A stretch of DNA of 64,000 bases from Mercurialis annua (taxonomy: Eukaryota; Streptophyta; Magnoliopsida; Malpighiales; Euphorbiaceae), in NCBI RefSeq assembly GCF_937616625.2, contig NC_065576.1:18130001-18194000 (forward strand), read 5' to 3'. The translations under genes and the position numbers were made by a program. Of the stretch, positions 1-57,963 are shown in pieces. Position 1 is the first letter of the stretch. Each line of letters opens with the position of its first letter. The notes under the pieces are model-generated. The model saw only the letters and a list, made by a program, of their open reading frames with translations, searched no databases and had not been told where the DNA came from.

Positions 1-2635
1 AGATTAGGCTTATGCTCCGATGGGTGTCAGCCGTTTACCAATTTTGGGCAGCATTATTCCTCGTGGCCGGTCATTTTGACGCCGTACAATCTCCCCCCAG
101 GCATGTGCATAAAGGATGAGTTTATGTTTTTAACGGTTTTGGTACCGGGGCCTAGAAACCCGAAACACCTAATGGATATCTTCCTACAGCCGCTGATTGC
201 AGAGTTGAACCAACTGTGGGAATGTGGAGTCCATACATATGACGTTCATAAGTGTCAGAATTTTCAACTAAAAGCGGCTCTTATGTGGACAATAAATGAC
301 TTTCCCGCTTATTCTATGTTGTCTTGTTAGAGCACTGCTGGTAGAAAAGCATGCCCGTACTGCATGGAAAACACCGATGCATTCACACTGGATAAAAACG
401 ATAAACAATCGTGGTTTGATTGCCATCGCAAGTTTTTGCATCCGAATCACCAATTCCGTCGAAATGTTACTGATTTCCGTAAGGGGAAACGAGAGGTCGG
501 CAAAAAGTTTGCAGGGGTGAGAACTGGAGATGAACTGTTAGCAGAGATTGATCGACTGGGGTTTAAGAAGGCATTTGAGCCTGGTGCGAAAGTTACTAAT
601 GCATTACTGTCAAAAGATCATGGGTGGAATAAAAAAAGTATCTTTTGGGATTTGCCTTATTGGAGAACGAATGTAATACGTCACAATCTCGATGTCATGC
701 ACATTGAGAAAAATGTCTTCGATAACATTTTTAATACCGTTCTCAATGTCCCCGGGAAAACAAAAGACCATGCAAAATCTCGTGAAGAGTTGAACGACAT
801 CTGTGATCGGCCAGGGTTAGCTAAAGATCCGGCAACTGGGAGATTTCCAAAGGCAATGTATGCTTTGGATAGGGATTCAAAACGAGTTTTGCTTGAGTGG
901 ATTCAGAAAATAAAGTTTCCAGACGGGTACGCGTCAAACTTGTCTAGATGTGTTAATCTAAAGGGGCTGAAAATGCATGGAATGAAAAGTCATGACTGCC
1001 ATGTTTTTATGCAACGACTTCTGCCAATCGCCCTTCGGGAGCTACTTCCGAAAAACGTGTGGGAGCCTCTAACAGAGTTAAGTATCTTCTTCAGGGAGTT
1101 AACTTCCACATCACTGTCATAGGAAGATCTAAACCGTATGGAAACTGAGATCCCAAAAATCCTGTGTAAGTTGGAACGTATATTTCCACCCAACTTCTTT
1201 GACTCTATGGAGCATCTCCTCGTGCATCTTCCGTATGAAGCTATGATGGCAGGACCGGTTCAGTATCGCTGGATGTATCCATTTGAAAGGTAATCAATTA
1301 GTCATGGTTTTTTCTCGAATCCATTTGTTCAATATATATATGATTATAGGAAATGCTTACGAATATTAATATCTGGTTACAGATATTTGAGGAAATTGAA
1401 AAAAAGGTCAGTAATAAAGGCAGGGTGGAAGGGAGCATTAGTAGTGGATATCTGCAAGAAGAAATCGCTAAATTTGCATCCTATTATTTTGCTGAAGGTG
1501 ATCCGATGTTACCCATGCGTTTGGGAAGAAATGAAACTTGTGATATGGATATCAATGACGATGCCGACAGACTGGGAATTTTTAAACCTAAGGGAAAGCC
1601 GTTGCGTGGTAGCGGTAGGAGATATCTCGAAGACGATGAGATCATCGCTGCTCGGACCTATGTTCTTCTGAATTGTTCCGAAATCGAAGATCATCGAAAG
1701 TAAGCATTTAAATATAGTGTAATATTTCACATATTTGCTAGAATTTGATGTAGTTTGGGCCTTTTCCATTTAAAGGGTTTTTGTGGCCGGGTTGCGCGAA
1801 AGGAACAGTGGCATAAGTGAAACAGAAATTGCAAGAGTGCTGGAAAGTGATTTCGCCTCTTGGTTCGAACAATATGTATGTATCTTATAACAATGAACTT
1901 TCATTTTTATAATAAGGTTTATAAATCTTACAAATTTCTAACTCCCCACAGGTGAAAGATCCAACTGTCTGTACTAATCTGTTTATTCTGAGTCTCGCAA
2001 AGGGACCATGTAGAAAGGTCACCACATATAAGGGATACTATGTAAACGGCTTCAAATTTCTTGCTCAGGAATATGGGCAGGATCAACTTACAATGAATAG
2101 CGGTGTCTGCGTAAGGGGAACATAATATGTTGAGGGTGAAAATGACTTTTATGGAGTGTTAACAGACATAATTGAGTTAGAGTATCCAGCTCTACCAATG
2201 AAGCAGACTGTCATTTTTAAATGCGAATGGTTCGACCCTACGGATACAGGCACAGACACTACCAATCGATACAACTTGGTAGATGTTAAACACAAACGCA
2301 GGTACAATAAATACGAACCATTCATCTTGGCAGAACAGGCTGACCAAGTTCATTACCTTCCATATCCAAGTAGAAGACGGGACAAAGTAAATTGGTGGGC
2401 AGTTTGCAAAATTAAGGCACGATCAGAACTTGACATGCCCGATGCGATTAACCCGGCCTTTCAAGAGGACATTGAAGAAAATCCCCTTATAGTTGAAACG
2501 GACGACAATCCCACAAATTTAGCTGGCCTGAATGAGGTGGCAGACGAAGATGCGTTGCAAATCCCTCCTGTTGAAGATGAAGAAGAAGAATATCCGCCAT
2601 CCTCATCAGACGAAGATGAAGAACAACTTGACTGA
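1..2635 (+). pseudogene. TNP2-type CACTA transposase, 5'-partial, disabled
   Basis: This would be the catalytic transposase of the CACTA element, acting on its terminal and subterminal repeats in the nucleus. The reading frame is open from base 1 with the typical Transposase_21 (TNP2) text; HNLDVMHIEKNVFDNI near 683-730 is the family signature. DUF4218-like sequence follows at about 1135-1290 and DUF4216-like sequence at about 2140-2400, then an acidic tail ending at TGA 2633-2635. I infer four exons: 1-1289, 1383-1699, 1776-1875 and 1952-2635, all with GT/AG borders and matching codon phase. Breaks are in-frame stops at 328-330 (TAG, where the family usually has Trp or Gly), 1120-1122 (TAG) and 2123-2125 (TAA), plus a frameshift in the A-run 1399-1405, which looks one A short. 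The N-terminus is outside the window. Confidence 0.9.
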
Positions 2636-2789
2636 CGTTTTGGATATTTTTTGCAGTTTTAGTTGTATTCATTTATTATTGTTAACATAACAATTTATTT
2701 TTTTATAATGTATTTTTCTATAATGTTTTGTTATAATGTATTTTTTAACAATGTATTAAATTGTTATATGTGGAACGAAATGTAGTTTA

Positions 2790-4547
2790 ATGTCTGCAGG
2801 TATGAGAGGGCAGGGTGGTTCAGGTGACCCGACTAGAGGTCGAGGACGTCGGGGTAACCCAGCTAGAGGTCGTGGTCGGGGTAACCCGGCTGTGCGTGCC
2901 CCTGTTGAGGACATCCCTGTTCAGGTTCAGCAGCAGGAGGTGGAGGCGGCACCCCCTGTTCAGCCCCGACAGCCAGGAGAGCCCCCTGCAGAGCTGGATG
3001 CCCAGGTGAGGGCACTGTGTTTCCCAGACGCGAGCAGGTAAGAATGTAAATTTTTAGTTTAATTTTTTTTAATCATTTTACTATAGAAAGTAAAAGTTTA
3101 CTGTAACCTCGTAGGGAGAGGCTGTTGAACTCTGGACCAATCTCCCGGTCTATACGGGAGATCTTTAGAAAGTGCTGGTTCGAGAATGGGCGAGCCTGGC
3201 GGTTTCTGACTGCAGAGCAGACAGATTTCTATTGGGAGGAATTTAAGGTAATAAATTGTTAATTTTAAAGTTTGAATTTAGACTAACGCAAAATTACTAA
3301 CTCAAACTTGGTGTTTATGTTTTGCAGAAGGAATACTGGTGGGATACGGCGGATTACAGCGACGACGTCATCAAAGGTGTATTCATGACGCATGCTGCCA
3401 ACCGATACAAGGACGTTATTCACAGGATGAGAGAGAAGGACGAAAAACATACCTCGATCAGCCAAGATATATGGGATTCCTAGAAGGCCTTCTGGGCGTC
3501 AAAGGACGAGAAGAAGAAGTTCGATGTAGCTCGCGCTAATCGGATGAGCGAGCCTGCTGGAGCCGGTTCCGGACCAGTACGCCATACAGGGGGATCCCGT
3601 TCCGCCATCAGACATATGGATGTGTTGGTTTGTTTCTAGAACTCTTTTTTATTTATAACTCTTTTTTATTTTCTGATTTTCTGATGAACTAACAAATTGT
3701 TTATTATTCTTTTAGGCTGACGAGCTCGGCCGCAAGCCTATCGCAACGGAGCTGTATACTCGGGTGCACTCCACTAAAGCTGATAAGGGTGTCATGGTCT
3801 ACAAGAGGGCCCAGGACATGAGTGTAAGTCATGAACCTATATAATTTTAGTAGTTGTTTTACTTTACTCAAGTGTTAGATTAAATTAGTGTAAAATGTGT
3901 TTTAATTTAAATTGTAAATGCTAGATTAGGTGTGTTAACAGCCGGTGGGTTGTATATGAAATCTATATGTTTGCGGGATGTCCCTGAAAAATGGGTGTTG
4001 ATCCAATTATAGAGGAACTGTCGAATTTTCGTTAGGAATTATACTTACATTTCATATGTTATACGTCTTCGGCCGTTATGTGATATGTTTTTCAATCTTT
4101 CTGTAGGATGCAATTGCGCAGAGACTTGCTGTTGCATCACAGCCGCCGACCGGAGATGGGGGTTCTTCTAGCACAGCGGAAGTCGACGAGACCCAGCTAT
4201 TTCTGGATATCGAGGGCGTCAACAAGAAGCGGCGTGTCTACGGGTTGGGTTCGGCGACTAGTGCGTACGTGGATACGACGACGTCTAGTAGGGCGAGGTC
4301 CAGGTCCACACAGTCACAGCGAACTGAGGAGGAGATCGAGCGGCGTGTGAAGGCAGGGATTCAGGATGGACTGCGCCAGATTACCACCGAGGTGGAGGAT
4401 CTCCGTGCCCAGCAGGCGAGAGCCAATGAGAGGATGGCCGAGATTATTTAGGCTGAGATGGCGAAGATGATGCAGACTCTTCCTCCGCAGTATCGCCCAC
4501 CCCCACCCCCAGATCCTTCGGACAATGACGACACTCCGACTTTGTAG
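2790..4547 (+). pseudogene. CACTA accessory protein, Transposase_24 (TNPA-like), disabled
   Basis: This is the second gene of the CACTA element, in the position of the TNPA-like DNA-binding accessory protein. I infer five exons: 2790-3037, 3115-3247, 3328-3627, 3716-3823 and 4107-4547. All have GT/AG borders and the codon phase holds throughout. The N-terminus is rich in RGRG repeats (residues about 10-35). The middle has the plant Transposase_24 (Ptta/En/Spm) pattern, including WFENGRAWRFLT in exon 2 and ANRMSEPAGAG in exon 3. The C-terminal exon has a charged, probably coiled-coil stretch (EEEIERRVKAG onward). Two in-frame TAG stops, at 3481-3483 (position of a family Trp) and 4449-4451, break it; the natural stop is TAG 4545-4547. 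It starts about 155 bp after the transposase pseudogene. Confidence 0.85.
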
Positions 4548-4771
4548 TGTCATGTTTGTATTTATGACATTTTGGTATTTTGTCACTGTATACATTTTGT
4601 ATTTTCTTGCTTTATATATTTTGTTACGACATGTATACTATAACATGTTTTTATATGACAGCGTTTTTTTCGGAAATTTAGTTATAATGTGAATTGCAAA
4701 TAGTAGATTTTACAGGTTATAATCGTCGTTAATAAAACAGGGAAACGGATGGAAAAAAAATTTTCTGTCCA

Positions 4772-5180
4772 AATTGCGACGGATTTTGCGACGGCAGTTT
4801 CGTCGCAAAGTTCCTTAAATTTGTCGCCAAAACAAGGCACTTTTGCGACGGAACACGCCGTCGCAAATTGTTAGTATTTGCGACGGACTTCTTTCCGTCG
4901 CAAATTGCCTTGTTTTGGCGACGGGCTTTTTCCGTCACCCAATTAATTAATCTGTCGCCAATTCGTCTCCTTTTTCTTTTTTGGGGAGACGAAATTGGCG
5001 ACGGGTTTTGGAATATGGCGATGGACTGTCCGTCGCCAGATTTGTGACGCCCTGGTTGCTATTTTTTTAGCGACCAGACAATCTGCGACGGAACAAATCC
5101 GTCGCAATTCTGTCGCAAATCCTTCTTTGCGACGGAATACTAGTACTTTGCGACGGATTTTTCCGTCGCAAAATCCCTGC
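4772..5180 (+). repeat. CACTA subterminal repeat field
   Basis: More than a dozen copies of a short motif (TTTGCGACGGA and its complement TCCGTCGCAAA, with GGCGACGG variants) fill this AT-rich stretch in both orientations. Such fields are where TNPA-type proteins bind in CACTA elements. The same stretch holds an inverted pair GTCTCC/GGAGAC around a T-rich loop (about 4966-4990). No gene is visible between 4548 and 5192. Confidence 0.85.
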
Positions 5181-5192
5181 TATCTAGTAGTG
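5163..5192 (-). repeat. CACTA terminal inverted repeat, right end
   Basis: Read on the minus strand this begins CACTACTAGATAGCAGGG and runs into a TTTGCGACGG subterminal motif. CACTA is the diagnostic terminus. The left partner is not in the window. Confidence 0.85.
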
Positions 5193-6389
5193 TTCCTCGA
5201 TATCGAAACCCAAAGACTTCGATCCACGAATCATATATCGAGGTAAACCAACCTTGACCATGTGAATAAATCATCTCACGTGCTACTCCACACGAAGAGA
5301 TAAACAAATACAATCAACTTAGTCCAACATGTAAATACGACGCAAATCAAAACTAAAAAAAAATTATGATTGCTACAAATCATAAACCACATAAGTGTTG
5401 CCATTAAACAAAATTTTACCCAATCATACTTAAAAGACAAAAACAAGACGTGCCACAACAAGCATGAATTTTCGTAACAAATCATTCTCTAAAATTTAAT
5501 CTTTTAAGTAAACGCTTCAAAATTCATTTTGAAATCTTAAAGTCAAATACGAAAACTTCCAAATTTTATTGAGCCCCACGGTTACAACAAAATCACTTTC
5601 TGTAAGAGTCTCTTCTTATTAATCAATTACTTTAAAATGGATATCCAAGTATCTCAAATCATTAAAATCATCGAGTTAGCCGAAAATTACAACTACTAAG
5701 CTTAACTCCTAAATTTGGGTGACCCAAGTCGAACCCCAAAACAAACGTTTATAAAACGTATTCAAAATATTTGCCATCCGGAAAAATCATTTTAATAAAA
5801 TTTTTATCTTTTTAAAATTGAGAGCTCAAGCAAACCAACCGCTAAACGGTAATTTAAAACTCAAGTGAGAAATCTTTAATCTCAAACTTCCATTCCGTAA
5901 ATCCCAAAATTTAAAATGTTGACATACTACAACATGATAAAATAACTTTAACTTAAATTCTTAAAACAATGGCTCGTCTCATAAATATCATTTTGAAATC
6001 ATCGCTTTTTAACACGAGACCAAACATAATATTTCAAAATATAAGAATTTCTTTTTACTGGTAATTCAACCACAAATCAAACTTTTTAAGAATTTAAAAT
6101 CAAACTTCTCTTATGATTATGTGTCGAAACACAAATTGGATAAACTAATATTCTCAATGAAAATCTTTAAATCAACATGTGGTCAAACAATGCATGACCA
6201 CCAAAATACGTTTTAAGGTTTAACCCAAAAATCTCTTTAATACAAAAACAAGGCTTACGCCCAAATGTATCCTCATATGTACTAGCGTATATAGCACCTA
6301 ACAATTACGGCCAAAGCAAAAATGTACTACCAAATAATCCATCGTTATTAATTCATTAGTGGCATAAAGCCAATATTTATCAAACAACA

Positions 6390-6475
6390 TCATACCCAAG
6401 TATGAGTTTTAGAAAAATTTGTCAACCTAAGATTTCCCGAGAAATCGAAAGCAATAGTAAAATTACCCAAGTGAA
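6390..6475 (-). promoter_or_regulatory. Three-hairpin leader block, TEK-1
   Basis: On the element's sense strand three stem-loops follow each other. TCATAC/GTATGA lies at 6390-6405 with loop TTGG, GATTTC/GAAATC at 6431-6446 with loop TCGG, and a decayed TTCAC/GTAAT at 6462-6475 with loop TTGG. The same block occurs in TEK-2, TEK-4 and TEK-5. Its role is unknown; packaging or dimerisation of the RNA is an inference. Confidence 0.6.
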
Positions 6476-6729
6476 ATAACCTCAACATAATAAATCACAG
6501 CAAGTAACATCCAAGTGAAATTAATTGTCAATCATAACATCAATACCAAATAAAGACTGACAGACATCACCTATAGGATGTAGGATGAAAGTTTAAAATC
6601 AAATGATGACGTTTTAAAAAGACAAGACACGAGTCCTAATTCCGCAGTAGTTCCTAAGACACGACATCAACTTATCATGTCAAAAACACATAACAAATAA
6701 CATGCATAAGGCCTTGGTTTGAAACCAAG

Positions 6730-6741
6730 GCCTTGATACCA
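6730..6741 (-). other. Primer binding site, TEK-1 (degenerate iMet)
   Basis: The sense strand reads TGGTATCAAGGC, four bases inside the LTR. It differs at two adjacent bases from TGGTATCAGAGC, the usual plant initiator-Met tRNA primer site seen in TEK-2 and TEK-5. Confidence 0.75.
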
Positions 6742-7603
6742 AGTTTGTCACGATTCATTTTCATGAATCCCGACCGGCGCTAGGGTATGGGTATGGTTGT
6801 ACCAAAACCCGTAGCTAGCCTTTGCGGATAACCAACAATTATAATTTAAGCAATGTACCTGCATAAAACCAATGCTCGGGGTAACCGAGACTTCAGCCTA
6901 GTTCTAGCAGTTCATAATATTTAACATAATTAATAAATGCTCGTACAACTACGAGTCTCTAAGATGGCATATATATAAAAAATCAGAATAACAGTATAAC
7001 ATGCCAGAGCAAATATATCCGGTCGGACCAATCCGACAAACAACTAGAATATAATAAAGACTTCTAGTTACTACTACGGTCTAAGAATAAAATAGTTGAC
7101 TAACTTTATCAAAATAAATGGAACCTCCGAGGAAAGTAAATAAACGGAGAGCATCTGACTCTCTCAAATTATAACTCTGGAAAATTGGGAAAAACAACGG
7201 GGTCAGATATAGTGAGATAAGTTTATACCACTATTTACATTTATCAAGTGGAAAACCTTTAAAACCGTTTAAAACATTTATAACAGCATTACGTTTAATA
7301 GTTGGAACCCTAATCCACAATACTACATATAACCATAATCCAATAGGCCTGGTCTCGAGAGCTGAGCTACACCGAGTTACCACCCACCACTCTTTAATTG
7401 AAACCAGAGTCCCGAGAGCTGAGCTACACCGAGTTACTCTACTAGTTCCGAGAGCTATGCTCACACCGAGTTAAAACCACATTTCACATACCTTATCTAG
7501 ATCAATACCGGTGATCACGCAGTCCTAATGAAGCCCATTAGGTAGCATGTTCCAACTAAGAGCCATAATGGAAAAACAGTTCGCAATTGTACATATACAA
7601 TAT

Positions 7604-7608
<5 letters not shown>

Positions 7609-7664
<56 letters not shown>
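7609..7664. repeat. (AT)n microsatellite
   Basis: About 28 uninterrupted AT units inside the TEK-1 LTR. Sister LTRs have a shorter tract (46277-46301) or hardly any at the same place. Confidence 0.95.
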
Positions 7665-7669
<5 letters not shown>

Positions 7670-7726
7670 TAATAATTTACTTAATAAAGCGGTAAATAGT
7701 AAGTAGAAAATCACTGCTTGCTAATC

Positions 7727-7732
7727 CACGTG
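7727..7732. promoter_or_regulatory. G-box CACGTG in TEK-1 LTR
   Basis: CACGTG lies between inverted arms TGCTTGC and GCAAGCA. The same site occurs in every other LTR here that keeps the region. CACGTG is the core site for plant bZIP and bHLH factors; binding is not shown. Confidence 0.55.
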
Positions 7733-9401
7733 AAAACTCCTGGCAAGCAACCTAGACTCGGTTCGCCTTGAAAGCACGAACAGTTGATGAGTCTAAACAC
7801 AATTGAATAATTATTAAAACAACCCTAACTCTATAAAGTACTAGACACCACATAGGACTAGCACAAACAACAAGTTAAGGTAAGGCAATCCAGAGTAAAC
7901 GTCATACTCAGATAAACATCAAACGTAAACAAACCAAGCCTATTGAGTTCCCGCTTTAAAATCCAATTCGGAAAATATTATTTAAATAACATTAAATAAT
8001 AAAACAATCCAATTTCCAAAACAGTGGGTTAGCCGAGTTACCGATAACTACCTAGCTAATCTCACATGTCGGGCGATCCAAGTCTAACCCGACCCAAATA
8101 TTTTATCAAAATATAAACCAGCGTTTATAATTACAAAAATAACTTTGATAAAATAATATATTTAAATTATAAAGCATAGTTTATAATTAATAAAACAACT
8201 TTGATAGAATCAAAAATTAAATTCAAAATGGAACCCAATAGCTTAAAATTTAAGTAACCAAAGTTACAACCAATACTTAACTAAAGTAAGTTAAGAAAGC
8301 GTTTTTTAAATTAAATTTATAATTTAACCAATAACAAGCTAAAAATTCTCAAATGATAATTACCCAAGTAATTATCCCAATAAAAGATTATAAAATACTT
8401 TGACAATTTATAATACTCCAAAACGATATTATTTCAACAGAGTAAACTGTTACCAATCAAAGTCAAATTGATATTAATAACTAGACCAAAGCCTAGTGCC
8501 CCAAATAAATCAAACTATTCATAGAATATATTTCTAATAACCCAAAGTATACAATACCAACTCCTAAGATAACTTACCACAATATAAATCAATTGATTTC
8601 CCAACAACTCAAGGTAAAACTAAGCAACATAACATAAGTCAAAACATTGATTAGACCACCCATCAATTAGGTATCCAAAGTAACTTTTAATTGATTAAAA
8701 TCAGCCCTTTAATAATCTTTTTAGCCACTTAATAAGTTCTTAAAACAGCAAATTATTATGAAGAACGACCTCCATCAATACCATCTCAATTCTATTCCAA
8801 GGAATCTAACCAATTAATGAATAACCAAAAACTAGCAATCTAAGACAAACCTTAAACAAAAATTCCAGATTTTTAGTAAGCCTAAAACATTATTATAACT
8901 CAAAAACTTCAACAAGTTGATTAGTTAATCAATTTCATCAACCATACCAATCCACCCAAGGTATAAGCGACATAAACAAGACAATTACAATACAAATAAA
9001 CATTTACAGATTTTAGAATCAAAGCAAAATAGAAAATATAAGGCAAGCCACCCAAAATAATGAATCAAAACATCATCTAACAATTTCTACAAGCCATAGC
9101 AATAGATTAGAGTTACATACCTCATGAAATAGACTAAGAACAATCAATAGAAGGAACTCCAGAAAATATAACAATCCAAATCAGCCTATGACAACATAAG
9201 AGGAGGAACAATGAATAGGAAACATGATTGAGTGTTAATCCAATGATTAAAAAATGGAAAGGAGTGAATAAATACTTACAACTGATTAAAAAGGACCAAG
9301 GAATGATAGGAGATGAAAATCAGAGAGCAACAGACGTTTTAGGGTTTTAGAATTGGGTGAAAACTGATTTAATTTGTTAAAGTCGTATTTATAGAATTTC
9401 A

Positions 9402-42173: not shown

Positions 42174-42256
42174 TTCATACCCAAGTATGAAACAAAACAA
42201 GTAACAATTAGGATTTCCCGAGAAATCAACATCATTAAAATGTTCACCCAAGTGAA
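42174..42256 (-). promoter_or_regulatory. Three-hairpin leader block, TEK-2
   Basis: Three perfect stem-loops lie between primer site and gag. TTCATAC/GTATGAA is at 42174-42191 with sense loop TTGG, GATTTC/GAAATC at 42212-42227 with loop TCGG, and TTCAC/GTGAA at 42243-42256 with loop TTGG. In all three a C-G pair closes a loop of the form T-pyrimidine-GG. Confidence 0.7.
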
Positions 42257-54399: not shown

Positions 54400-54480
54400 T
54401 CATACCCAAGTATGACATAAAGAAAATTACCAACATAAGATTTCCCGAGAAATCAAAAGCAATTAATTCACCCAAGTGAA
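54400..54480 (-). promoter_or_regulatory. Three-hairpin leader block, TEK-4
   Basis: All three stem-loops are perfect: TCATAC/GTATGA at 54400-54415 (loop TTGG), GATTTC/GAAATC at 54439-54454 (loop TCGG), TTCAC/GTGAA at 54467-54480 (loop TTGG). They are preserved although this element has no genes. Confidence 0.7.
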
Positions 54481-54581
54481 ATAACATCAATATAGTAAAA
54501 TAAAAACATCAAATCAAAACATAATTAATGACTGACTTGACGCAATCCTATCGATGTAGGTAGAAAGTTTTAAAATCAAAA

Positions 54582-56080
54582 TGTAATACCCCGTATTTTC
54601 TATTGCTTTTTTTTTTGTAAATTCTGTCGTTTGACTTGTGGAATAAACTCTGGACTTGATCCATCGTCACTTGTGGGCCTTATAAAAATCCAGCAATTGT
54701 TGTGTAATATCCGGAAAATAATAATAATAATAATAATATTAATAAAATAAAGTAAAATAAAATAATAATATCAATAATAGTAAAATAAGGATAATAAGGA
54801 TAATAATAAGATAAGGGCTAAATTGGAAATTCATCTATTTTAAATAAAACCCTAATCTTAATCTAAGCCTATTTAAAGAAAACTAATTTAGGTTACAAAA
54901 AAAATAAAAAAAAATTGCCGTTCTATTCTTAAGATTACAATTTTATAAGGATAAAGTTTCATCGGAATATTACTGCTATTTTCAAGGTATGATTTACTTT
55001 GTTTAATTTTATGTATTAATTTTGTTTGTGTATCTATATATTAACCAGTTAGAATAAAAAAGGTTAATGGTTTTCGTTTATGGAGTTATTGAAAGTTGAT
55101 ATTGTTCCCAATTAAAAGTTTTGGCTAGGACAAACAATTTGTTGATTAGTGGAACTTTTGCTTAGTGAAACTTTGATTCGGAATAGACAAATTTTGGTAC
55201 ACAACAATGAAATTATACATAAATTCAATTCTCACATTTATGTTTTATAGGTTAAGATAATTGTACACCTCACTTTTCATATTAATGAATTGACATGTAA
55301 AAATCTATAACCTAATCATGAAAATGCGCACATTATTTTTTTTGTCATCAGGTTTATCATTTTTTGTTGGTTCTGATTATTGAATTGTCATAAACTTTGG
55401 TTCTTAATAATTTGTTTATTGTTTTGGTTGGCGGAATGGTATTGTGTCGTTGGCAGGAGCAAATTGGTTTTGTATTAAGTGATGGTTAAAGGATTAAAGT
55501 GTTCCTTAGGTTGTTTTGTTTTAAATCAATTGATTCCCTAAATTAAATTCTAATTAATCACTTCTACCTATTGTTATTTGATTTAGATTTTTACTTTCGA
55601 ATTTAGTTTCGATTTATGATTTGGCAATTTGGCAACATTATTTTTAATCTAAAAATAATATTATTTTTATTTATTATTTAGATTATTTTTATAATCGGAA
55701 ATGATGATTATATTTTTAATTAATAATTTTAATTACTTGGATAATTATTATATTTTGGAATAGTTGACTAGACGTCTTTATTATTATTACAGTTGTTTGT
55801 CGGATTGGTCTGACTAGTTATATTGCTCTGGCATGTTATATGATTATTTCGGATTATTTATGTTATGCCTATTTTTAGACTTAGAATTGGATAAGCATGT
55901 TATATTAATTATTGAATATTATAACTGCTAGATTTAGGCTGAAGTCTCGGTTGCCCCCGAACATTGGTTTTCTGCAGGTTTAATTAAATTGTATGTTATA
56001 AGAAAGGCTAGCTACGGGTGTTGGTATTATATTACCCATGCCCTAGCGCCGGTCACGATTCATGAAAATGGGTCGTGACA
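54582..56080 (+). repeat. TEK-5 5' LTR, internally deleted (1,499 bp)
   Basis: Starts TGTAATACCCC and ends TCGTGACA. Compared with the 3' LTR it lacks about 1.14 kb between two CTAGACGT sites (62546 and 63687 in the 3' LTR; the joined copy is at 55768-55775). The lost part includes the G-box and the three CCGAG-AGCT motifs. It keeps about 150 bp near 55115-55255 that the 3' LTR lacks. An (AAT)n run is at about 54717-54740. Confidence 0.87.
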
Positions 56081-56084
56081 AACT

Positions 56085-56112
56085 TGGTATCAGAGCTTTG
56101 GTTTCAAACCAA
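56085..56112 (+). other. Primer binding site and adjacent hairpin, TEK-5
   Basis: TGGTATCAGAGC at 56085-56096, four bases after the LTR, matches plant initiator-Met tRNA. TTGGTTT/AAACCAA at 56098-56112 forms an inverted repeat directly after it. Confidence 0.9.
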
Positions 56113-56301
56113 GGCCATTTGCTTGCTATGTGTTTGCTCTGTTAAGTAAGGTTGTGTCTTAGGAACTACTGCGGATATAGGTTTCTGTCATGTCTTTAAA
56201 AACGTCATCTTTTGATTTTTAAAACATTCTGCCTACTCCAATAGGATTGCGTCGAGTCAGTCATTATATGTTGATTTGATGCTGTTAAATGTTAATTTTA
56301 T

Positions 56302-56383
56302 TTCACTTGGGTGAACATTTTATTGCTGTTGATTTCTTGGGAAATCCTAAATGTTGCTTGTTTTGTTCATACTTGGGTATGAA
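56302..56383 (+). promoter_or_regulatory. Three-hairpin leader block, TEK-5
   Basis: TTCAC/GTGAA (56302-56315), GATTTC/GAAATC (56331-56346) and TTCATAC/GTATGAA (56366-56383), each closing a TTGG loop. The block ends about 40 bases before the gag start codon. Confidence 0.7.
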
Positions 56384-56703
56384 ATATCTGTGTATTTAAA
56401 TTGTTTTTGTTCAATCCTTAGGATATGGACAACGTTGTTCGTACTCGTGCTCGTGCTGCGGCAGAGCAGGAAGCTGTGGCTGATGATGCGATTTCCATGG
56501 AAGTCGATCAGAACGTACCACCAGTTCCGGCCAATGCTGGACGTGGTAGAGGTAGAGGTGCTGGCAGAGGTAGAGGTAGAGGCAGAGGAGCTGGTGCTGG
56601 TAGAGGTGGAGCTAGAGGACGTGGTGCAGCAGGTGTTCAGGCACCGAATGTACAGCAGGTACCGAATGTGCAGCAGGCTCCAGGGGTGCAATAGGCACCG
56701 AAT

Positions 56704-57639
56704 ATGCAGGCGTTCAACTTCACTACTTTCTTGGCTGGGATTGTCGAGATGCAGAACAACCAGGCTATTATGCAGAATCAGTGTACTGTACTGGGTCAGT
56801 TAGCGCAGAAACAGCAACCTCAGGCTGGTGTTGTAGCTGGTATGGGTGGACTTGCTGGTGTCGGTCACATTCCGACAGACAGAGAATTGGTGATAACCTA
56901 CACGAAGTTGAATCCGACTTCTTTTGATGGTACTGGGGATGCTCTTGACTTCTTGGAAGAGTTTGATTACAATAGTCAGAGAATTCAAGCTACTGATCGT
57001 CAATTAGTGATGCTTGTGGAGATGTCGCTGAAGGGTCCAGCCAAGGACTGGTTTTGTGATAACATCGGACCAGATATGGCTACATTGTCTTGGGCTGATT
57101 TTGTGACAAGGTTCAGAGGTTACTATCTACCTTTCTCTGTTACTGAGAATTTCAGAGAAAAGCTGCTGAGTTTGAAGAAAGGGGATAGATCAGTGACAGA
57201 CTACACTACAGAGTTTGTCCGTTTGGGGCGGTTTGCTACAGATCTACAGGGTGATCGTGGGCGAGTGAACGACCGCTATATCAGGGGTTTAGGCTCGGAG
57301 TTTCTTCCTTTTCTGATAGGGGCAGACATGGAGTTTGCTCGGGTAGTGGACAGTGCTCGACGGATGGGGAATTCGTTGATTCAGTTTGGGACGATCTCTA
57401 ACCCTTCCCAGAACCAGAAGGGAAAGACTGATGTTCCTAGTGGGGGGCAACAGGCCCCAGTGCAGCATGGTAGTGGGAACTACTATAGTGGCTCTTCTCA
57501 GGCCAATAAGGGGAGTCGCCGTACTCACAACAAAGGGAGGCATAGTGCTAGGAGTGCTCCGTACAGTTCTAGTAGCAGTGGGAGTAACCGTGGTTCAGGA
57601 TGCAGGTACAGTGGTGGATCGAACATTCCGTTCTGCTAG
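56704..57639 (+). pseudogene. Gag segment of TEK-5
   Basis: The longest intact Gag stretch (311 residues) between two TAG stops. It contains GPAKDWFCDNIG and FRGYYLPFSVTENFREKLL and is followed by a Ser/Gly-rich tail leading to the zinc fingers. Confidence 0.88.
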
Positions 57640-57963
57640 AATTGCAGGCGCAGGCACTATGGTCAGTGTCAGCTAGCTCCTGGAGGTTGTTTTTCTTGTG
57701 GCCAGCCGGGTTATTTTTCCAGGGAGTGTCCGACATCTGGGCAGTAGATGTCTAACTCTAGTGTGGCGCAGTCATCTTATCAGCAGTAGAGACCTGCGTT
57801 TACATAGTCTGTAGGGTACTCTCAACCTGCAGCATCTTTTGGTGGCCAGCGGGGCCGTGGTTATGGTGGTAGAGGTTTTGGTGGCCGTGGTAGCGGTGGT
57901 AGAGGTTCCAACAGTTATGGTACTGGGCAGAGTTCGCATCAGCAGCCGCAGGGTCAGGCCAGA

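What the first reader, a model, noticed from the sequence alone, without database searches (positions are those of the whole stretch)
56098..56383. Structured retrotransposon leader: three tandem TTGG-loop hairpins
Between primer site and gag, TEK-5 has TTCAC/GTGAA, GATTTC/GAAATC and TTCATAC/GTATGAA, each closed by C-G over a four-base TTGG loop. TEK-2 has the same three (42174-42256), with TCGG in the middle one. Loops and stems are conserved while spacers vary. A fourth inverted repeat (TTGGTTT/AAACCAA) sits beside the primer site, and its CCAA could pair with the TTGG loops. That such a block could serve RNA packaging, dimerisation or priming is inference.
Basis: partly seen in the sequence, partly recalled or inferred. 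Interest (0 to 1): 0.75.

Follow-up and report, generated by a model that had tools for sequence, protein, structure and literature searches.

The report
Retrotransposon leader with repeated hairpins
Just before its coat-protein gene, an abundant plant jumping gene carries three small hairpin-forming sequences with the same loop, and relatives with no coat-protein gene in that place still keep them, which suggests (but does not prove) that they tag the RNA for packaging.

Summary
TEK-5 has TTCAC/GTGAA, GATTTC/GAAATC and TTCATAC/GTATGAA, each on a TTGG loop, between the initiator-tRNA primer site and gag. Shuffled leaders reach three such stems in 0.5% of cases and three with one loop in 0 of 5000. 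The window holds four such leaders, not two. Of 89 leaders sampled through an independent box, 76 keep at least one exact hairpin core. Between subfamilies 44 of 48 hairpin columns agree, against 17 of 34 columns between the hairpins. A subfamily with no gag match within 1.5 kb (30 of 30 loci) keeps primer site and hairpins. RNA pairing is not shown: 0 of 18 pairs have a Watson-Crick double change in 68 copies, and the local folding z-score is about 0. A separate family with the same primer site has four tandem hairpins, two with a compensated pair. Best reading: a psi-like Gag-recognition block, unproven. CCAA:TTGG kissing is not supported: in the gag-less subfamily the middle loop is TCGG in 24 of 30 while the CCAA repeat is exact in 26 of 30.

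The parts
54580..56083 (+). 5' LTR of TEK-5 (approximate bounds; 3' LTR from about 61501)
   Evidence: LTR blocks 97.6% and 96.0% identical
56085..56096 (+). primer binding site TGGTATCAGAGC
   Evidence: complement of the 3' end of a host initiator tRNA-Met gene plus CCA
56095..56115 (+). primer-site-flanking hairpin GCTTTGGTTTCAAACCAAGGC
   Evidence: -9.6 kcal/mol alone; by eye two pairs differ on both sides from family D (L073)
56159..56175 (+). conserved box YTAGGAACTACTGYRRA, shared with other families using the same primer site
   Evidence: 1230 exact genome copies vs 0 for the reversed pattern
56302..56315 (+). hairpin H1 TTCAC-TTGG-GTGAA
56331..56346 (+). hairpin H2 GATTTC-TTGG-GAAATC
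56366..56383 (+). hairpin H3 TTCATAC-TTGG-GTATGAA
56414..56424 (+). short inverted repeat ATCC-TTA-GGAT just before the gag ATG (56425); contains a TAG that looks like a 3' splice site; probable counterpart of hairpin H4 (TTCATTC-TTAG-GAATGAA) of family C
56425..57747 (+). gag of TEK-5 (interrupted), with a zinc knuckle near its end
   Evidence: Retrotrans_gag E 5e-12, zf-CCHC E 2e-4
42174..42256 (-). H3-H2-H1 block of TEK-2 (H2 loop TCGG)
54400..54480 (-). H3-H2-H1 block of a further, truncated copy that abuts the TEK-5 LTR
6390..6475 (-). H3-H2-H1 block of a gag-less (subfamily B) copy; flanking hairpin at 6711-6731

Best explanation
Proposed mechanism: the genomic RNA displays three short stems with U-U-G-G (or U-C-G-G) loops; the loop guanosines are bound by the zinc-knuckle region of Gag, several loops giving a multivalent docking site that marks the RNA for the particle. 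Gag-less relatives keep the primer site and this block and are packaged in trans. Shown: position, excess over chance, conservation above the spacers, retention in elements without gag in the tested 1.5 kb, a zinc knuckle in Gag. Inferred: that the stems form in the RNA, that Gag binds them, and that packaging (not translation or splicing) is the function.
For: Three hairpins with one loop sequence exceed chance. 76 of 89 box-anchored leaders on contig C1 keep at least one exact core, 61 at least two, 21 all three. Hairpin columns agree in 44 of 48 (A vs B) and 45 of 48 (A vs C) against 17 of 34 and 27 of 34 in the spacers between H1 and H3; 1 of 133 circular shifts of the mask does as well in each comparison. 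L075 of subfamily C has a gag only 52% identical to that of TEK-5. Subfamily B (L031-L060) has no gag match within 1.5 kb in 30 of 30 loci, against a match in 30 of 30 of L001-L030, and no stop-free run above 97 aa in the 22 of 30 that could be measured; TEK-5 gag and pol pieces find nothing better than E 0.2 in window 1-9000, which holds a B copy. B resembles TEK up to H3 and no further, and the 54-kb copy's match to TEK-5 ends at 56382, the last but one base of H3. By eye, H3 reads as H1 with two bases added symmetrically to each arm. Family G, same primer site, has four tandem hairpins with GC/AT and CG/TA exchanges. Precedent: BARE2 cannot make Gag, keeps packaging signals and is packaged into BARE1 particles (PMC3735527, abstract and passages); HIV-1 NC knuckles bind guanosines of hairpin tetraloops (PMC7599994, passages).
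Against: No Watson-Crick double change in any of 18 pairs over 68 copies (5 of 73 rows dropped because H2/H3 are missing or disrupted; one of those, L105, has an H1 double change by eye). Kinds of change seen in two or more copies: one-sided 5 breaking and 4 giving G-U, two-sided 1 breaking; in single copies: 13 one-sided breaking, 4 one-sided G-U, 1 two-sided G-U. Local folding is no better than shuffles: z -0.04 and -0.27, although the whole leader gives -2.37. Mean stem pairing probabilities are 0.16-0.68 in A and 0.42-0.64 in B. A lineage with a TEK-like gag start (L091, L103, L105) keeps an H1-like and an H4 hairpin but lacks H2 and H3. B also carries an upstream CACTTGGATG copy whose closing pair is broken. 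BLAST pieces of the B loci stop at or just after H2; H3 is recognised beyond by its core. In Ty3 both UTRs and POL are said to be needed for packaging (PMC11381356, passages), and MLV NC did not bind isolated psi hairpins well (PMC7599994, passages). No binding or packaging data for TEK.
Confidence: 0.43

Rival explanations
1. The conserved units are sequence motifs read as DNA or as single-stranded RNA by a host or element protein; the hairpin form is incidental. All three can be written as TTC and GAA half-sites around TTGG with 0, 2 or 4 extra pairs between (by eye).
For: No compensatory changes in H1-H3 and pair-breaking changes not avoided; fold z-score near 0; subfamily B keeps an upstream CACTTGGATG copy without a hairpin; shared TTC/GAA half-sites.
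Against: Three perfect inverted repeats around one central sequence are unlikely by chance; symmetric additions to both arms and the compensated pairs of family G point to pairing.
Confidence: 0.22
2. The leader from somewhere upstream to the gag ATG is an intron; the hairpins modulate splicing, and unspliced RNA with the hairpins is the genome while spliced RNA makes Gag.
For: In 8 of 8 loci that I picked because the gag start was recognisable (families A, C, E/E-like, F, G) the ATG follows TAG or CAG by 1-3 nt, with 11-15 pyrimidines in the 20 bases before; family D has an exon-like stretch with a strong donor (CAG|GTATGT, CAG|GTACGT). BARE1 makes spliced gag RNA.
Against: In the 15 loci outside family D the best donor scores are 5.8-7.8 bits against 10.4-10.6 in D (17 loci, approximate matrix recalled from memory); a review says plant LTR elements generally lack introns, with exceptions (PMC12786077, passages). 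The leader is T-rich. No RNA data.
Confidence: 0.12
3. The hairpins control translation of gag (ribosome stalling, shunting or masking of the ATG).
For: H4 of family C covers the gag ATG (TTCATTC-TTAG-GAATGAA), and in L062 and L087 the ATG sits in the loop of an 8- or 10-bp stem.
Against: H1-H3 are kept in subfamily B, which has no gag in the tested 1.5 kb.
Confidence: 0.1
4. Priming or dimerisation: the CCAA of the primer-site repeat pairs with TTGG loops, or the flanking repeat pairs with the T-arm of the primer tRNA.
For: The flanking hairpin is stable and highly conserved; GGTTTC, 3 nt after the 12-nt primer site, matches the complement of the tRNA T-arm (shuffle fraction 0.027).
Against: Loops change to TCGG, TTAG and others while CCAA stays; TTGG is not self-complementary; the longest leader:tRNA match overall (7 nt) is reached by 421 of 1000 shuffles; in vivo Ty3 studies do not support a role of the primer site in dimerisation and packaging (PMC11381356, passages).
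Confidence: 0.08
5. Hitch-hiking: the block is conserved only because the subfamilies are young and recently related.
For: LTR blocks of TEK-5 are 96-98% alike; stems are conserved as letters.
Against: Spacers between the same hairpins agree in only 17 of 34 columns (A vs B) while hairpins agree in 44 of 48; gag of L075 is 52% identical.
Confidence: 0.05

Closest known systems
BARE1/BARE2 of barley (Ty1/copia), packaging and dimerisation signals kept by the Gag-less BARE2
   Same: LTR retrotransposon of plants; gag-less partner keeps the leader signals (abstract and passages of PMC3735527)
   Different: BARE is copia; there packaging into particles was shown, here nothing beyond sequence; the passages seen mention no series of UUGG hairpins
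Retroviral psi (HIV-1 SL2/SL3, MLV and RSV stem loops)
   Same: hairpins upstream of gag with loop guanosines; Gag with zinc knuckle (PMC7599994 passages)
   Different: here the same loop is repeated three times; fold and Gag binding untested
Coronavirus SL5 repeated UUYYGU hexaloops
   Same: several stems with one loop motif in the 5' region, proposed (not shown) as a packaging signal (PMC10927501 passages)
   Different: unrelated virus; hexaloops in a multiway junction, not separate tandem hairpins
Yeast Ty3 leader
   Same: Ty3/gypsy element primed by initiator tRNA; primer and dimerisation sequences in a structured 5' end (PMC11381356 passages)
   Different: bipartite primer site, palindromic dimerisation site; no repeated-loop block in the passages seen

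Membership tests
Ty3/gypsy chromovirus, Tekay-type | gag, protease, RT, integrase in gypsy order | tested here: met
   Retrotrans_gag, RVP_2, RVT_1, Integrase_H2C2 above cut-off; rve 32.1 bits just under 32.6; RNase H not tested
Ty3/gypsy chromovirus, Tekay-type | C-terminal chromodomain on integrase | tested here: inconclusive
   Chromo E 2e-5, 24.8 bits against a cut-off of 25.1
Ty3/gypsy chromovirus, Tekay-type | phylogenetic place in the Tekay/Del lineage | not tested
Ty3/gypsy chromovirus, Tekay-type | primer site for initiator tRNA-Met | tested here: met
   host tRNA gene found; its 3' end plus CCA matches 12 of 12; that it is the initiator rests on a recalled 5' sequence
psi-type packaging signal | structured RNA between primer site and gag with compensated stems | tested here: inconclusive
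   conserved hairpins, but no Watson-Crick compensation in 18 pairs of 68 copies and z near 0; compensation only in family G
psi-type packaging signal | kept by gag-less elements that depend on another element's Gag | tested here: met
   30 of 30 B loci without gag in 1.5 kb, hairpin blocks kept; the dependence itself is inferred
psi-type packaging signal | needed and sufficient for encapsidation by the cognate Gag | not testable with these tools
   needs particles
kissing-loop dimer initiation site | self-complementary loop | tested here: not met
   TTGG, TCGG and TTAG loops are not self-complementary (loops)
known Rfam family | match above gathering score | tested here: not met
   0 matches in the window

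The most novel reading that the evidence does not exclude
Plant chromodomain retrotransposons carry a lineage-specific 'loop code': tandem hairpins between primer site and gag whose repeated loop (UUGG here, other loops in other families) is the multivalent address read by the cognate Gag; gag-less parasites arise by keeping exactly primer site plus code, so their break points map the packaging signal.
Probability: 0.2. Interest if true: 0.75.

Novelty: new variant of a known kind. Interest (0 to 1): 0.48.

Why it matters
Plant Ty3/gypsy elements fill much of many plant genomes, and to my knowledge (recalled) their packaging signals are little defined; the nine answered literature searches listed no paper whose title or abstract start describes one for a Tekay-type element, though only listings, and passages of six papers, were seen. 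Here natural gag-less variants narrow a candidate to about 300 nt ending at H3, with three short loops that can be changed one by one. A shared loop motif could also explain how gag-less parasites choose their host element.

Tried and rejected
Kissing CCAA:TTGG: not supported, on loop variation. Strong local thermodynamic stability: not found. Rfam: no match. Relatives outside this genome: two scans of viral contigs with the H2 pattern and the box pattern gave 50 and 76 stretches; none of the 126 holds the 12-nt primer site and none has H2 within 120 nt of an H1 or H3 core, so they look like chance matches. Conservation in other plants is untested. Extended tRNA pairing: weak. Primer-site-flanking hairpin as a general feature: shuffle fraction at most 0.03 in 5 of 20 distinct flank types (L087, L082, L064, L073, L069), higher in the other 15. 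Splice donors: none above 7.8 bits outside family D.

Full report
Where it is. The window is 64 kb of contig C54 of a 451-Mb genome. The elements are LTR retrotransposons with gypsy-order domains: gag, protease and RT, and integrase domains are found in TEK-5, with a chromodomain match just under its cut-off and a zinc knuckle. The primer site TGGTATCAGAGC at 56085 is complementary to the 3' end (CCA added) of a tRNA-Met gene of the same genome, taken as the initiator on a recalled 5' sequence.

The observation. All three hairpins are present as described in TEK-5 and, on the minus strand, in TEK-2. Two further leaders in the window carry the block: a copy at 54.4 kb that abuts the TEK-5 LTR, and a copy at 6.4 kb whose H1 has two broken pairs. 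In 5000 dinucleotide shuffles per leader, three or more Watson-Crick stems of at least 5 bp over 4-nt loops appear in 0.5% (TEK-5) or 0.62% (TEK-2), and three with one loop sequence never.

How widespread. Exact H1 occurs 694 times in the genome (reversed pattern 2), exact H2 with either loop 1113 times (reversed 0). As a sample not chosen by the hairpins I used the conserved box YTAGGAACTACTGYRRA, about 75 nt after the primer site in TEK (1230 copies, reversed 0). Of the 89 box sites listed on C1 between 2.8 and 28.8 Mb, 76 have at least one exact hairpin core at the right distance and strand, 61 at least two and 21 all three (exact H1 demands an outer pair that subfamily B lacks). Twelve of the 13 without were read: seven (L092, L093, L096-L099, L104) are other families that share the box, five (L091, L100, L103, L105, L106) are relatives with an H1-like hairpin but without intact H2/H3. 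The 13th was not fetched.

Subfamilies. A (L001-L030, TEK-2, L069) is the gag-bearing group of TEK-5; all 30 of L001-L030 have gag downstream. C (L075, L094) keeps H1 and H2 (loop TCGG) and an H3 with G-U pairs and a TTAG or TTGG loop, and adds H4 (TTCATTC-TTAG-GAATGAA) over the gag ATG; the gag of L075 is 52% identical to that of TEK-5. B (L031-L060) has no gag match within 1.5 kb in 30 of 30 loci and no stop-free run above 97 aa in the 22 of 30 that could be measured (28 of 30 measured in L001-L030: 80 to 503 aa). TEK-5 gag and pol pieces find nothing better than E 0.2 in window 1-9000, where a B copy lies. B nevertheless shares the LTR end, primer site, flanking repeat, box and hairpins. 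Its BLAST resemblance to TEK-5 stops at or just after H2, the H3 core follows in the alignment, and beyond H3 I see no alignable stretch in the rows compared; the match of the 54-kb copy to TEK-5 ends at 56382, the last but one base of H3. This is the strongest hint of function in trans. B was tested for gag over the first 1.5 kb only, and the loci are the 30 best of one query each, so they are close relatives of the queries.

Conservation against structure. Between A and B, 44 of 48 hairpin columns agree but only 17 of 34 columns in the spacers between H1 and H3; between A and C, 45 of 48 and 27 of 34; 1 of 133 circular shifts of the hairpin mask does as well in each case. Whether the constraint is base pairing is open. 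On 68 of 73 leaders (five rows without intact H2/H3 dropped: L091, L100, L103, L105, L106) none of 18 pairs shows a Watson-Crick double change. Changes seen in two or more copies are one-sided to G-U in four cases (A-U to G-U in H3 of 14 copies is the commonest) and pair-breaking in five, plus one two-sided breaking change; single-copy changes are 13 breaking and 4 G-U, plus one two-sided to G-U. Several breaks look like decay of methylated cytosines (inference). Among the dropped rows, L105 changes the outermost H1 pair on both sides (by eye). Folding of the block is no better than shuffles (z -0.04 TEK-5, -0.27 TEK-2), the whole leader z is -2.37, and stems form in the ensemble with mean probability 0.16 to 0.68 in A and 0.42 to 0.64 in B.

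Comparison within and between leaders. H3 equals H1 with two extra bases placed symmetrically in each arm (TTC-AT-AC-TTGG-GT-AT-GAA), H2 has TTC/GAA directly at the loop, and H4 differs from H3 by an A-U to U-A swap (by eye; common origin is inference). This fits hairpins copied and kept paired, but the shared TTC/GAA also fits half-sites of a motif. A different family with the same primer site, G, has four tandem hairpins between primer site and gag start: as many stems as in L076 in 0 of 2000 shuffles, as many as in L064 in 0.35%; in 12 copies (10 chosen by me from the 40 listed as more diverged, plus L064 and L076) one pair is GC in 6, AT in 5 and AC in 1, another CG in 10, TA in 1, AG in 1; other pairs of these hairpins are broken in one or two copies. 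The lineage of G is not established: the gag match of L064 to TEK is weak (25%, E 9e-6), and L076 shows no frame of 80 aa in its last 1.1 kb. There is no tree-based control for these counts.

Mechanism. I favour a psi-like Gag-recognition block. Position, repeated loop, a zinc knuckle in Gag and retention by gag-less relatives fit it. HIV-1 NC knuckles bind guanosines of hairpin tetraloops, although MLV NC did not bind isolated psi hairpins well (PMC7599994, passages); BARE2, which cannot make Gag, keeps packaging signals and is packaged into BARE1 particles (PMC3735527, abstract and passages); repeated loops have been proposed as a packaging signal in coronaviruses (PMC10927501, passages). 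In Ty3, by contrast, both UTRs and POL are said to be needed (PMC11381356, passages). None of these steps is shown for TEK. Rivals are motif recognition without structure, leader splicing, translation control and priming. The kissing idea is not supported: the H2 loop is TTGG in 28 of 30 A but TCGG in 24 of 30 B, with TTGGTTTCAAACCAA exact in 29 of 30 and 26 of 30.

Splicing. In 8 of 8 picked loci the gag ATG follows TAG or CAG by 1-3 nt, with 11-15 pyrimidines in the 20 bases before. A leader intron would make the block specific to unspliced genomic RNA, as in retroviruses, but donors are weak except in family D, and a review says plant LTR elements generally lack introns (PMC12786077, passages).

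Verdict. Real, widespread in this genome, conserved; likely functional; structure and function unproven. A candidate packaging signal for a plant gypsy-type element is a new variant of a known kind, useful because the gag-less variants and the repeated loop make it easy to test.

Noticed in passing
L061-L064, L069, L075, L076, L087 and window 56410-56427: gag ATG lies 1-3 nt after TAG/CAG in 8 of 8 picked loci, like a 3' splice site; family D (L073, L082) shows an exon-like stretch ending in a strong donor.
   Followed up: partly
window 56159-56175; 1230 genome copies: Box YTAGGAACTACTGYRRA after the primer site is shared by families whose leaders otherwise differ; function unknown.
   Followed up: partly
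L064, L076, L235-L244: Family G leader with four tandem hairpins and two compensated base pairs.
   Followed up: yes
G000 C4:836956-874605, C55:18715996-18723678, C1:16580697-16588086: Subfamily B leaders recur at about 7.35 kb spacing (one step 7.9 kb on C4), suggesting tandem LTR-sharing arrays.
   Followed up: no
L061, L063, L071, L084, L088: Primer-site-flanking block with GGTCCAGTTACCAC is repeated about 60 nt downstream in family F, with small changes between copies.
   Followed up: no
window 9760-34330: Long array of 29/60-base repeats (AAACGTTTGG...) with a 9.9-kb direct duplication 99.8% identical.
   Followed up: no
window 2156-2635: ORF with DUF4216 (recalled as typical of CACTA transposons), in the same window region as the gag-less copy.
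   Followed up: no
L062, L087: The gag ATG sits in the loop of an 8- or 10-bp hairpin (TTGGTCAG-GATGT-CTGACCAA in L062).
   Followed up: no
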